Below, in pieces: positions 51,107 to 54,428 of a stretch of 64,000 nt of DNA (within the stretch, counting starts at the first letter, position 1; every line of letters starts with the position of its first letter). The position numbers were made by a program, and so were the translations under genes. The DNA is from an uncultured Nesterenkonia sp. (GTDB lineage: Bacteria; Actinomycetota; Actinomycetes; Actinomycetales; Micrococcaceae). Under the pieces are notes generated by a model, which had not been told where the DNA came from, ran no database searches, and was given only the letters and a program-made list of their open reading frames with translations. The stretch is from contig CANLUC010000001.1 of NCBI GenBank assembly GCA_947494195.1, forward strand, positions 558,001 to 622,000, written 5' to 3'.

Positions 51107-51967
51107 TCAGCTTCCGAGCTGTCTCTCGTCGTAGTCGGCGATCCAGTCGGCCGTGGTCTCCATCCCGCCGAAGGTGTAGAAGTGCAGCTTCACGTCCCCT
51201 GATTCGGGCGTGAGTCCCTTCTGCAGGTCCCGGATCAGACGCTCCGGCCCGGCAGTCCCCAGCAGGTTCGTCATGGAGAATCCATACTTGCGGGCGATGC
51301 CCGCCGACGTTGCGACCCCGAAGCGTTTCGCGTAGGTCATCAGCCGCTTGATCCCGGCAGGGCCAGGCACGCCGATCCGAATGGGCAGCTCGATTCCCCG
51401 AGCACGGACCTCACGGATCCACTCATGGATCGGGTCTACGTCGAATCCGAACTGGGTGAGGATCGTGCCGGAGAGACCCTGCTCCTGAAGCGCCGCGACC
51501 TTGGCCTCCAGCACATCCCAGAGCTCAGAATCGGCAATGTCCGGGTGCCCCTCCGGATAGCCCGCGATGGAGATGTCGGTGAATCCATGCTCCGCCGGGA
51601 GGCCTGAACGAATGAGATCCAGGGCCGAGGCGTAGGGCCCCATGGGTTCGGACGGATCTCCCCCGACGGTGAAGAGATGGGCAGCTCCCACCTGACCCCG
51701 CAGGGCCGCCAGGAACTCGACGAACTCCTCCTCGGAGGACATCCTCCGAGCCGCCACGTGGGAGACGGGGATCAGCCCGGCCTCGTGGACAGCCTTGGCT
51801 GCCGCCACTCGCATGTCGAGGTTCTCGTTTCCCAGGAACGTCACGTTGACGCGGGTCCCGGGTGTGAGCTTGGGAGCCGCCGCCAGAAGCGCGTCCACAT
51901 CTTTTCCCGTCATCTCTAGTGAAGGGTCCGCCATCACGGAAGCTGTTGAGTCACTGTTCGTGGCCAT
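51107..51967 (-). CDS. Methylenetetrahydrofolate reductase-like protein (MetF family)
   Basis: A 286-aa TIM-barrel flavoprotein of the MTHFR family. Seen are PHLFTVGGDPSEP-like AAHLFTVGGDPSEPMGPYAS, ISIAGYPEGHPDIADSEL and ILTQFGFDVDPIHEWIREV, the last covering the FAD/folate pocket. The end KLHFYTFGGMETTADWI is family-like. I start at ATG51967 (AAAGGTGA upstream). Sitting after ligM-like and purU genes, it may run in the oxidative direction, from 5-methyl-THF to methylene-THF. That direction is inference. Confidence 0.85.
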   Translation of the reverse strand: MATNSDSTASVMADPSLEMTGKDVDALLAAAPKLTPGTRVNVTFLGNENLDMRVAAAKAVHEAGLIPVSHVAARRMSSEEEFVEFLAALRGQVGAAHLFTVGGDPSEPMGPYASALDLIRSGLPAEHGFTDISIAGYPEGHPDIADSELWDVLEAKVAALQEQGLSGTILTQFGFDVDPIHEWIREVRARGIELPIRIGVPGPAGIKRLMTYAKRFGVATSAGIARKYGFSMTNLLGTAGPERLIRDLQKGLTPESGDVKLHFYTFGGMETTADWIADYDERQLGS

Positions 51968-52046
51968 CTTGATCACCTTTTGTCTTTCGTAGTCTTCCGA
52001 ACCGGGGTCTGCGCAGCATCTGACGTGGGAACCGGTCCCGCGGGCA

Positions 52047-52922
52047 TCAGAAGACGATCGTGGCGGAGCCGTCGCGCAGAACGCGGTCTTCACAGTGCGC
52101 CTGGACAGCTGAGGAGAGGACCCGACGTTCGACGTCGGCGCCTCGCCGTTGAAGGTCCGCAGCCGTGTCTCGGTGGGACACCGCAATGACGTCTTGGGCG
52201 ATGATGGGCCCCTCATCGAGATCCTTGGTCACATAATGGGCCGTCGCTCCCACCAGCTTCACGCCGCGTTCCTTCGCCTTACGGTACGGCGCGGCCCCGA
52301 TGAATGCCGGAAGGAACGAGTGATGGATGTTGATGACAGGGACTCCGAGGCCTTCGATGAAGTCCTCGGTGAGGATCTGCATGTATCGGGCCAGCACGAC
52401 GAGGTCCACATTCCCCTGCAGCAGCTCAAGCTGCCTGGCCTCCACCTCTTCCCGCGGCCTGCCGGCCGTGGGCGTGTGGAAGAAGGGGATGCCCAGCGAT
52501 CGGACATCTTCGTCCAGGCCGGTGTGGTTGGAGATGACCATAGCGATGTCGACGGGCAGCTCACCCCGCCGATAGCGCCAGAGCAGGTCCAGCACGCAGT
52601 GATCCGACGTGGAGGCCATGACCGCGATGCGCTTCTTCTTGGAGGCATCCACCAGCGAATGCTCGAGCTGGAAACCTTTGAGCGCCTCACCGACCTTGGC
52701 ATCCAACGCCGGCAGCTCCGCGGAGAGATGAGGCATCGAGAACACAGTGCGCTGGAAGAAGCGTCCTCCGTCGGGGTCCGTCGTGTGCTGGTCCAAGGAG
52801 ATGATGTTGGCACCAGCTGCGGAGAGTATCTCGGTGATGGCAGCCACAATTCCAGGCTCATCGGTGCCGTACACAACAAGCCTGCCCACATCCGTGAACG
52901 ACTCGCTCTTCTCTGCGCCCAT
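52047..52922 (-). CDS. purU: Formyltetrahydrofolate deformylase
   Basis: A 291-aa hydrolase releasing formate and THF from 10-formyl-THF. An N-terminal ACT domain (VVYGTDEPGIVAAITEILSA) precedes the hydrolase domain with the catalytic Asn-His-Asp set in VINIHHSFLPAFIG, GATAHYVTKDLDEGPIIAQD. AAAGGA lies 8 bases before ATG52922. PurU generally keeps the THF pool free, and here it would recycle the THF used by the adjacent demethylase. Confidence 0.93.
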   Translation of the reverse strand: MGAEKSESFTDVGRLVVYGTDEPGIVAAITEILSAAGANIISLDQHTTDPDGGRFFQRTVFSMPHLSAELPALDAKVGEALKGFQLEHSLVDASKKKRIAVMASTSDHCVLDLLWRYRRGELPVDIAMVISNHTGLDEDVRSLGIPFFHTPTAGRPREEVEARQLELLQGNVDLVVLARYMQILTEDFIEGLGVPVINIHHSFLPAFIGAAPYRKAKERGVKLVGATAHYVTKDLDEGPIIAQDVIAVSHRDTAADLQRRGADVERRVLSSAVQAHCEDRVLRDGSATIVF

Positions 52923-52968
52923 GGACGTTCCTTTCACTCCAGATCTCTCCCGTCTTGGGGTCCGGCGA

Positions 52969-53006
52969 CGTGCCGACCGCCCTCGATGTCAGCAGTGGTC
53001 GGCACG
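52969..53006. terminator. Hairpin between the ligM-like gene and purU
   Basis: 10-bp arms CGTGCCGACC and GGTCGGCACG separated by 18 bp in an operon gap of about 100 bp. It may attenuate or process the transcript rather than end it. Confidence 0.5.
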
Positions 53007-53021
53007 AGCACCTGATTCAGC

Positions 53022-54428
53022 TCAGGCCGTGGTGCCGGTCCGCCAACCACCGTGGTACTCCTTGCGCGCCACGACGGAGAAAGGCACCGGGCTGACCACG
53101 GCTCGGACCTTGATCTGTTCGTGGGGCTCCACCGTGGGCTTGGAGGTTCCCCCGTCGGGCTCGCCCCACAGCACTGTGACCTCGGCACCCTCTGGGACCT
53201 CCGGAGAGACGGTGGCCAGAGAGATGGCGCGGCGATCGTTCGAGGTGTAACCGGTGAACATCGAGAAGCCGACATTCGTGCCATCGGCATCGAGCACCGA
53301 GTCGTAGTTGGAGGAGCCGTACTGGGCCATCGGCAGGTCGAAGTACTTGTACTGAGGTCCGTCGACGTCTACCAGCGAACCCCAGATCTTCTTCATGTCT
53401 TCGCTGTTCCAGGACAGCGTGACCTTTCGGCGCTGGGCCGCCGGATCGACCTTCTCCAACGCCTCACGTCCGATGAACTCGTGGTCGAACTTCACGAAGT
53501 TGCCATAGCCGAGTTCCCAGGGGGTGAGGTAATAATCCTCGATGGAACTGCCGACGAAGCTGCCGGCGATCGCATTGACCGCCTCGTAGCTGTCGGCGCC
53601 CAGCCACTCGCGATAGCCCCGCATCTCTTCGCCTGTATAGATCGCCGGAAGAGGAGACGGGATCCAGCCCGACTCGATCGTGTTGGAGGAGTACGTGCGT
53701 GACCCTACGGGCACGATGCCGAACTCTGCTCCCTGTTCCAGGATCACGTCACGGATCCGGAAGTAGTCCTCATAGGGGCCCCAGAGCTCCAGACCTGGCG
53801 CGCCGGCCATGCCGTGACGCAGGGTCCGCACCTGGGTGCCATCGACCTGCATATGCGACATGTTGAAGAACTTCAGCTGCTCCAGCGAACCGCCATGGAG
53901 CTTCTCGATCACCTGCCAGGCATTGGGGCCCTGGATCTGGAAGCGCCAGAACTTGCGCTGAACCGCACGCCCCAGGGGGTGGGACGGAGAACGACGATCA
54001 ACCTCGACGGTGACGTTGTAGCCACCCGTCTCTGCGTGGAAGATCAACCAGTTCGCAGCAGGCGAGCGCCCGACATAGATGAATGTCTCCTCCGCCTCGC
54101 GGAAGACGATCCCGTCGCCGATCACATGACCGGAATGAGAGGTGGGAACGTACTGCTTGGCCTTGTTCACCGCGAAGTTGGCCACGGAGTTGACCGCCGT
54201 GTCCGAGATCAGCTTCAGAGCATCAGGGCCCTCGATGATCAGGTTGTCCATGTGGTGAGACTGATCGAAGAGCACGGCAGAATTGCGCCATGCCTGCTGT
54301 TCGGTCCGCCAGTTGGAAAATTCCGTCGGCACGACCGGGTAGACGTAGGCGCCCAGCTGAGAGTTGCGAAGCAGGTCCACGGTGCTGTTCGAACCGTCCA
54401 GGACATCTTGCAATGACCGGTGAGTCAT
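53022..54428 (-). CDS. LigM/DesA-like THF-dependent aromatic O-demethylase
   Basis: A 468-aa GcvT-fold protein. Close to memory of Sphingobium LigM (vanillate and 3-O-methylgallate O-demethylase, about 470 aa): [128 protein letters not shown] and [14 protein letters not shown]. It is longer than GcvT (about 370) and lacks a Rieske centre. Predicted reaction: methoxyaromatic acid + THF to phenol + 5-methyl-THF. AAGGAGA precedes the ATG. First gene of a cluster with purU and MetF-like genes. Confidence 0.86.

What the first reader, a model, noticed from the sequence alone, without database searches (positions are those of the whole stretch)
51107..54428. THF-dependent methoxyaromatic demethylation cluster (LigM-like, PurU, MetF-like) in an actinobacterium
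The 53022-54428 gene carries many LigM/DesA blocks in order and has LigM length, not GcvT length. In Sphingobium, ligM stands beside metF and formyl-THF ligase. Here the next genes on the same strand are purU and a MetF-like gene. That would form a full loop: aryl-OCH3 + THF gives 5-methyl-THF, MetF-like oxidises it to methylene-THF, and PurU releases formate and frees THF. Gram-positive vanillate demethylation is usually attributed to the Rieske VanAB system, so this arrangement with a deformylase in place of a ligase looks unusual. The seen part is the motifs and gene order; the pathway is inference.
Basis: partly seen in the sequence, partly recalled or inferred. Interest (0 to 1): 0.78.

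Follow-up and report, generated by a model that had tools for sequence, protein, structure and literature searches.

The report
Folate-dependent vanillate demethylation operon in Nesterenkonia
This actinobacterium carries a small operon that probably moves methyl groups from lignin-derived aromatic acids onto a folate carrier and releases them as formate; each enzyme type is known from other bacteria, but this combination seems little described.

Summary
Window 53022-54428(-) is a LigM: 898 bits against the LigM model (cut-off 580), 308 of 463 residues identical to SYK-6 LigM. PurU is real. The MetF-like gene (start corrected to 51967) is not an ordinary MetF: its best solved relative by far is 7xg9, and both fall in one clade with 99/97 support.

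The genome (genus Nesterenkonia) has protocatechuate 3,4-dioxygenase 56 kb away, no VanA_C match (44), no formate-THF ligase match (14), one FolD (45), a second PurU elsewhere (58) and no other MTHFR match (9). Sister strains carry ligM-purU-metF-folE-dak between menE and menB; folE is missing here.

Most likely: vanillate + THF -> protocatechuate + 5-methyl-THF; MetF-like oxidation; FolD; PurU releases formate. Every reaction is inferred from homology.

Novelty was overstated. A MetF homologue lies near LigM in 25 of 30 actinobacterial loci, PurU in 9; MetF/PurU disposal of methyl-THF is known from chloromethane degradation, LigM-MTHFR from SYK-6. The LigM + S6MTHFR-type + PurU combination looks new in what I could read. 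New variant of a known kind.

The parts
53022..54428 (-). ligM: THF-dependent vanillate / 3-O-methylgallate O-demethylase, 468 aa
   Evidence: NF047885 898.3 bits, cut-off 580; PDB 5tl4/5x1i E about 1e-219; 308 of 463 identical to SYK-6 LigM; LigM clade 100/100
52047..52922 (-). purU: 10-formyl-THF deformylase, 291 aa, accessory copy
   Evidence: TIGR00655 344.8 bits, cut-off 285.95; a second PurU of 376.2 bits lies on contig 5
51107..51967 (-). metF-like: S6MTHFR-type methylene-THF reductase homologue, 286 aa, proposed to oxidise 5-methyl-THF
   Evidence: PDB 7xg9/7xlf 283 bits, other MTHFRs 40.7 bits or less; clade with 7xg9 99/97; only PF02219 match in the genome
49330..50955 (-). dak: dihydroxyacetone-kinase-type protein, 541 aa, last gene of the same-strand run; role in the pathway unknown
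   Evidence: Dak1 and Dak2 domains; below NCBIfam cut-offs; kept beside the set in L006/L102 and L101
50956..51106 (-). gap where sister strains hold folE (GTP cyclohydrolase I)
   Evidence: both edges align to the two sides of folE in L101; L101 gene is GTP_cyclohydroI 240.6 bits
54555..54582 (-). sigma-70-like promoter match upstream of ligM
   Evidence: TGGACA-16-TATATT, 10 of 12; region kept in two sisters
54442..54462 (-). 8-bp inverted repeat CCCGTGAG-5-CTCACGGG just before the ligM ribosome site; function unknown
   Evidence: present in window, L101 and L102, not found in the 16 other upstream regions examined

Best explanation
A catabolic operon for O-demethylation of vanillate and similar 3-methoxy-4-hydroxybenzoates. 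LigM moves the aryl methyl group to THF, giving protocatechuate (cleaved by the genome's PcaGH) and 5-methyl-THF. The S6MTHFR-like MetF oxidises 5-methyl-THF to 5,10-methylene-THF; the single FolD found elsewhere in the genome takes it to 10-formyl-THF; the operon's own PurU hydrolyses that to formate and frees THF for the next round. Shown: gene identities, order, conservation and genome content. Inferred: substrate, direction of the MetF step, flux to formate, co-transcription. The role of dak is unknown.
For: LigM identity, residues and tree. MetF groups with 7xg9 and with the MetF beside a LigM-like gene in Novosphingobium pentaromativorans; S6MTHFR of SYK-6 is reported to oxidise 5-methyl-THF (PMC12585457, held text read whole). 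All 7 LigM-positive Nesterenkonia have an MTHFR match against 9 of the other 23. PurU in the operon is a second copy, and the same three genes recur in G345 of another family and in two Naasia MAGs. pcaHG present; no VanA_C or formate-THF ligase match. In chloromethane degradation metF and purU are essential for growth (PMC3621897, passages).
Against: No activity data. The direction of the MetF step is taken from one homologue, and that 7xg9 is the SYK-6 enzyme is recalled, not shown by a call. The recalled active-site residues are kept also in 46 of 46 Rhizobiales rows, so they do not set the LigM clade apart from those. PurU is near LigM in only 9 of 30 actinobacterial loci. No aromatic transporter or regulator was recognised beside ligM in the window. 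In a Kocuria strain that has VanAB, extra vanillate and syringate demethylase genes were not induced by ferulate (PMC12343579, passages). The source of vanillate in this organism was not looked for.
Confidence: 0.75

Rival explanations
1. The methyl group is meant for biosynthesis: LigM supplies 5-methyl-THF for methionine, and the MetF-like enzyme is the cell's ordinary reductive MTHFR, with PurU only balancing formyl-THF.
For: It is the only PF02219 match in the genome; SYK-6 uses the pair to feed C1 metabolism (PMC12585457).
Against: 14 of 30 Nesterenkonia have no PF02219 match, so the genus does not depend on this type; a reductase would be redundant beside LigM; a dedicated second PurU points to disposal.
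Confidence: 0.15
2. The natural substrate is another methoxyaromatic, such as 3-O-methylgallate or a compound cleaved by the class III extradiol enzyme on contig 2, with vanillate secondary.
For: LigM of SYK-6 acts on both vanillate and 3-O-methylgallate; relatives lie beside LigK-type aldolase and oxalomesaconate tautomerase genes of a 4,5-type route; the genome has one LigB-family protein.
Against: The window genome has pcaHG over cut-off; the LigB-family protein passes the Pfam cut-off but no NCBIfam cut-off and its role is unclear.
Confidence: 0.2
3. The gene is a GcvT, DMSP-demethylase or dimethylglycine/sarcosine-type aminomethyltransferase read as LigM by mistake.
For: Same folate-binding domain (PF01571).
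Against: 898.3 bits for LigM against 84.8 or less for those models; the tree; a separate GcvT-like protein of 384 aa is encoded (not scanned against family models).
Confidence: 0.01

Closest known systems
LigM-metF-ligH operon of Sphingobium sp. SYK-6 (LigM / S6MTHFR module)
   Same: LigM orthologue (308 of 463 identical) next to an S6MTHFR-type MetF (taking 7xg9 as S6MTHFR, which is recalled)
   Different: PurU (hydrolysis) instead of the formate-THF ligase LigH, no such ligase match in the genome; protocatechuate 3,4-cleavage genes where SYK-6 uses 4,5-cleavage; a GcvT-like protein present, whereas SYK-6 lacks the glycine cleavage system
Chloromethane (cmu) pathway of Methylobacterium extorquens CM4
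   Same: Divergent MetF2, FolD and PurU dispose of methyl-THF as formate; metF and purU essential (PMC3621897, passages)
   Different: The methyl group enters through the corrinoid enzymes CmuA/CmuB there, through LigM here; FolD is outside the operon here
Rhodococcus opacus DSM 44186 plasmid pRop44186_a cluster (L183)
   Same: LigM, MTHFR and PurU in one actinobacterial cluster
   Different: Also FolD, pabB, a Mur-ligase family gene, a second aminomethyltransferase, LigK and an extradiol dioxygenase; its MTHFR is of the other type
MABO-FolD-PurU of the nicotine plasmid pAO1 (Paenarthrobacter nicotinovorans)
   Same: Actinobacterial operon ending a demethylation with PurU (PMC6214936, passages)
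   Different: N-demethylation by an oxidase at methylene level; no MetF step
Rieske VanAB vanillate demethylase
   Same: Would give the same aromatic product
   Different: Oxygen-dependent, releases formaldehyde (PMC9867520, passage); no VanA_C match here

Membership tests
LigM (NF047885) | Score over the curated equivalog cut-off over the full length | tested here: met
   898.3 against 580 bits, residues 6-465 on model 1-460 of 461
LigM (NF047885) | Groups with experimentally known LigM of SYK-6 | tested here: met
   38-row clade 100/100 in a 59-row tree; 99 in the 96-row quick tree
LigM (NF047885) | Catalytic Tyr247 and substrate residues (Tyr29, Tyr31, Gln57, His60, Arg122, Phe188, Trp256; list recalled) | tested here: met
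   all identical to SYK-6 LigM
LigM (NF047885) | THF-dependent demethylation of vanillate / 3-O-methylgallate | not testable with these tools
   needs an enzyme assay
DesA (NF047633) | Score over the curated cut-off | tested here: not met
   624.2 against 800 bits
GcvT / DMSP demethylase | Score over the curated cut-offs | tested here: not met
   GcvT 84.8 against 300 and 45.8 against 235.85; DMSP demethylase 43.2 against 410
Canonical MetF (TIGR00676) | Score over the curated cut-off | tested here: not met
   44.3 against 293.7 bits
S6MTHFR-type MTHFR | Groups with the S6MTHFR structure (7xg9, attribution recalled) | tested here: met
   283 bits; 19-row clade 99/97
S6MTHFR-type MTHFR | Oxidises 5-methyl-THF | not testable with these tools
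   needs an enzyme assay
PurU (TIGR00655) | Score over the curated cut-off, ACT plus formyl-transferase domains | tested here: met
   344.8 against 285.95 bits; ACT and Formyl_trans_N
SYK-6 ligM-metF-ligH operon | Formate-THF ligase (LigH) present | tested here: not met
   no PF01268 match in the genome
Rieske VanAB vanillate demethylase | VanA C-terminal domain in the genome | tested here: not met
   no PF19112 match; the control search found it in Corynebacterium glutamicum

The most novel reading that the evidence does not exclude
Actinobacteria have their own recurring, methyl-THF-to-formate form of aryl O-demethylation (LigM + S6MTHFR-type MetF + FolD + PurU, often with folate-synthesis genes) that can stand in for VanAB without oxygen use or free formaldehyde at the demethylation step; LigM and its MTHFR may have passed between actinobacteria and sphingomonads as a unit, with PurU or LigH added locally.
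Probability: 0.45. Interest if true: 0.55.

Novelty: new variant of a known kind. Interest (0 to 1): 0.4.

Why it matters
Aryl O-demethylation is described as often a key bottleneck in lignin conversion (PMC6021390, start of abstract in the listing). A compact THF-linked route in an actinobacterium, ending in formate instead of formaldehyde, would give a Gram-positive source of LigM and of an oxidising MTHFR, and says where to look when VanAB is missing. It also suggests that one ending (MetF-like, FolD, PurU) serves chloromethane and lignin aromatics, and part of it nicotine.

Tried and rejected
Rejected: GcvT, DMSP-demethylase and DesA identity; a known RNA element in 49000-55000 (no Rfam match up to E 0.5). 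Left open: whether SYK-6 LigM is nested in the actinobacterial rows (the 36 actinobacterial rows form one side of a branch with weak support 87/59). No operator is claimed for the inverted repeat before ligM, which is kept only in the two close sisters. Scans of window genes at 40420-43123 and 56137-63366 gave a two-component pair, menaquinone, cytochrome-assembly, redoxin and phosphatase genes, none linked to aromatics. A first MetF tree lacked the closest sister rows through a fault of my script; one search replaces it. A look for a paper naming 7xg9 found two that only hold the letters by chance.

Rows left out before counts. LigM rows: homologues with over 85% coverage and over 250 bits, duplicates removed, 132 rows; one search used 94 of these plus 2 GcvT-like rows (38 near-identical Rhizobiales and Arthrobacter rows dropped); one search used 59 rows picked by hand; the residue count used 39 clade rows (the long-branched row L029_3863, which one search places in that clade, was left out), 46 Rhizobiales-type rows and 13 paralogues. 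MetF: one search used 37 of 84 rows. The 30 actinobacterial loci are the best hits of one search (75 loci kept; 287 stretches encode a relative), several with short flanks.
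Full report
WHAT IS THERE. On the minus strand lie, in reading order, ligM (54428-53022), purU (52922-52047), a metF-like gene (51967-51107) and a dihydroxyacetone-kinase-type gene (50955-49330), with gaps of 99, 79 and 151 bp and plausible ribosome sites. Upstream of ligM is the only promoter-like site found in 49000-55000 (54582-54555, two overlapping matches). The flanks are menaquinone genes, menB at 48163 (over cut-off) and menE at 54932 (best model o-succinylbenzoate-CoA ligase, 315.6 against 345 bits). 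The four genes have 61.7-64.3% G+C against 67.4% for the window and 68.2% and 70.0% for menB and menE.

LIGM. The protein scores 898.3 bits with the NCBIfam LigM equivalog (cut-off 580) and 624.2 with DesA (cut-off 800); the other aminomethyltransferase-type models stay at 84.8 bits or less. It is identical to SYK-6 LigM at 308 of 463 aligned positions. The residues that I recall as catalytic (Tyr247) and substrate-binding are all kept (the list is recalled, no paper read here gives it). Tyr31, Arg122 and Tyr247 are the same in 39 of 39 LigM-clade rows and in 46 of 46 Rhizobiales-type rows, whereas in 13 of 13 paralogues from actinobacterial clusters Tyr31 is Phe and Arg122 is His (10) or Leu (3). 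So the residues separate LigM-like proteins from those paralogues, not LigM from the Rhizobiales homologues; the tree does that. In a tree of 59 rows the window protein, SYK-6 LigM, a Novosphingobium plasmid homologue and 35 further rows, all actinobacterial, form a clade with 100/100 support, apart from the Rhizobiales rows. Whether SYK-6 LigM is sister to or nested in the actinobacterial rows is open (87/59). The sampling started from the window protein and so favours its kin.

METF-LIKE. Its best solved relative is 7xg9/7xlf, a 288-aa MTHFR, at 283 bits; the other MTHFRs are at 40.7 bits or less. I recall 7xg9 as the SYK-6 enzyme S6MTHFR, but no call shows its organism. The 15 best plasmid-borne relatives of 7xg9, of 99 records, are Novosphingobium, Sphingobium, Agrobacterium and Rhizobium at 50.7-53.5%, which fits an alphaproteobacterial source without proving it. 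In a tree of 37 rows, 19 rows including the window protein, 7xg9 and the MetF of Novosphingobium pentaromativorans form one clade, 99/97; that last MetF lies beside purU, ligAB genes and a LigM-like gene, which itself falls outside the LigM clade. S6MTHFR is reported to oxidise 5-methyl-THF to methylene-THF (PMC12585457, the held text read whole).

PURU AND THE REST OF THE GENOME. The genome (2.78 Mb, 27 contigs, 99.91% complete) has a second PurU over the cut-off on contig 5, and all 30 genus genomes searched have at least one, so the operon copy is an extra one. It has one LigM over the cut-off and one weak match to a GcvT-like protein, one PF02219 match, one FolD, no formate-THF ligase match and no VanA_C match. 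Fourteen of 30 genus genomes have no PF02219 match at all, so the genus must meet its MTHFR need, if any, in a way this model does not see. Protocatechuate 3,4-dioxygenase beta and alpha subunits, both over their cut-offs, lie at C1:668.6-670.1 kb, about 56 kb from ligM, next to PcaB- and PcaD-like genes below cut-off. One LigB-family protein at C2:97 kb passes the Pfam cut-off but no NCBIfam cut-off.

COMPARISON. By its LigM (96% to Nesterenkonia sp. Act20) the organism belongs with Nesterenkonia. Sister genomes G009 and G024 carry ligM-purU-metF-folE-dak between menE and menB; here folE is missing and the gap aligns to both of its sides. As both sisters have it and the window's LigM branches inside them, loss is the simpler reading; whether the genome has another folE was not searched. 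In 10 menE regions of other Nesterenkonia (nine without LigM over the cut-off, one, G005, with LigM elsewhere) no LigM, MetF or DAK match was found; menB was in the stretch in 3 of 10, about 50 bp from menE in G029 and 4.5 and 5.9 kb from it in G016 and G023. Insertion in the window's lineage or loss in others cannot be told apart. LigM over the cut-off occurs in 7 of 30 Nesterenkonia and 11 of 396 phylum genomes, own genome included. All 7 LigM-positive Nesterenkonia have a PF02219 match against 9 of the other 23 (hypergeometric p about 0.006, worked by hand, kinship not corrected).

Around 30 actinobacterial LigM hits a MetF homologue of either type is present in 25, PurU in 9, FolD in 4, FolE in 3; around 45 alphaproteobacterial hits MetF is present in 25 and PurU in 4. 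LigM, PurU and the same MetF type recur together in G345 of another family (MetF-PurU-LigM, L199) and in two Naasia MAGs (L026, L029). Among 34 loci plus the window, clusters of proteins represented by a LigK-type aldolase occur in 12, an oxalomesaconate tautomerase in 9, a PIG-L protein in 9 and a catechol-2,3-dioxygenase-like protein (below cut-off) in 9 (representatives). Rhodococcus opacus plasmid pRop44186_a has a class III extradiol dioxygenase, FolD, PurU, MTHFR, an aminomethyltransferase, pabB, a Mur-ligase family gene, PIG-L, LigK and LigM side by side. These neighbourhoods support aromatic catabolism with folate recycling.

HOW IT PROBABLY WORKS. Vanillate + THF -> protocatechuate + 5-methyl-THF (LigM); 5-methyl-THF -> methylene-THF (MetF-like, oxidising); methylene-THF -> 10-formyl-THF (FolD, elsewhere in the genome); 10-formyl-THF -> formate + THF (PurU). 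Only gene content, order and conservation are shown; the reactions follow from homology to SYK-6 and to the chloromethane pathway, where metF and purU are essential for growth and MetF2 is likewise far from E. coli MetF (25%) (PMC3621897, passages). In SYK-6 the operon is ligM-metF-ligH (PMC6888825, passages); here PurU takes the place of LigH, so the last step would give up the ATP that LigH could recover (my inference). In a Kocuria strain with VanAB, further vanillate and syringate demethylase genes were not induced by ferulate (PMC12343579, passages), a warning against reading function from presence; the window genome has no VanA_C match.

NOVELTY. LigM-type enzymes in actinobacteria are noted in print: a Micromonosporaceae MAG (PMC9296663, passages and section 17) and an Arthrobacter protein grouped with LigM and DesA (PMC5547118, passages). 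The LigM-MTHFR gene set is said to occur in many other bacteria (PMC12585457). A search for papers with both 'ligM' and 'purU' found one, in which the two are not linked; a search joining THF-dependent demethylation, purU, metF and folD led with chloromethane and SYK-6 papers among others. Yu et al. 2025 is not held, so I cannot say that the LigM-PurU link is unpublished. I rate this a new variant of a known kind.

Noticed in passing
L020 and L024, roughly 110-130 bp upstream of the LigM match start: Two Citricoccus loci share an inverted repeat ATACCTAT-4-ATAGGTAT upstream of ligM, a possible operator.
   Followed up: no
G007:C3:84.5-88.5 kb, and the like in G008, G013, G018, G022, G027, G028, G029: In 8 of 30 Nesterenkonia an MTHFR homologue lies close to a GcvT-like protein of about 415-490 aa that scores weakly with the LigM model, in several with a further one of about 900 aa: perhaps other THF-dependent demethylases with their own MTHFR.
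   Followed up: no
L099 (G000:C2:90000-105000), 1833-9896: A LigB-family dioxygenase stands beside a citryl-CoA-lyase-like protein (over one subfamily cut-off), a CaiB-type CoA-transferase and a 968-aa frame with a weak match to MenE: possibly an unstudied aromatic or CoA-linked route.
   Followed up: partly
   Followed up: no
L021:6028-7380 and relatives in 9 of 35 sources: A catechol-2,3-dioxygenase-like protein (below cut-off) recurs beside LigK-type aldolase and oxalomesaconate tautomerase near LigM, with no LigAB seen among the representatives scanned: a candidate for an unusual ring-cleavage enzyme of this route.
   Followed up: partly
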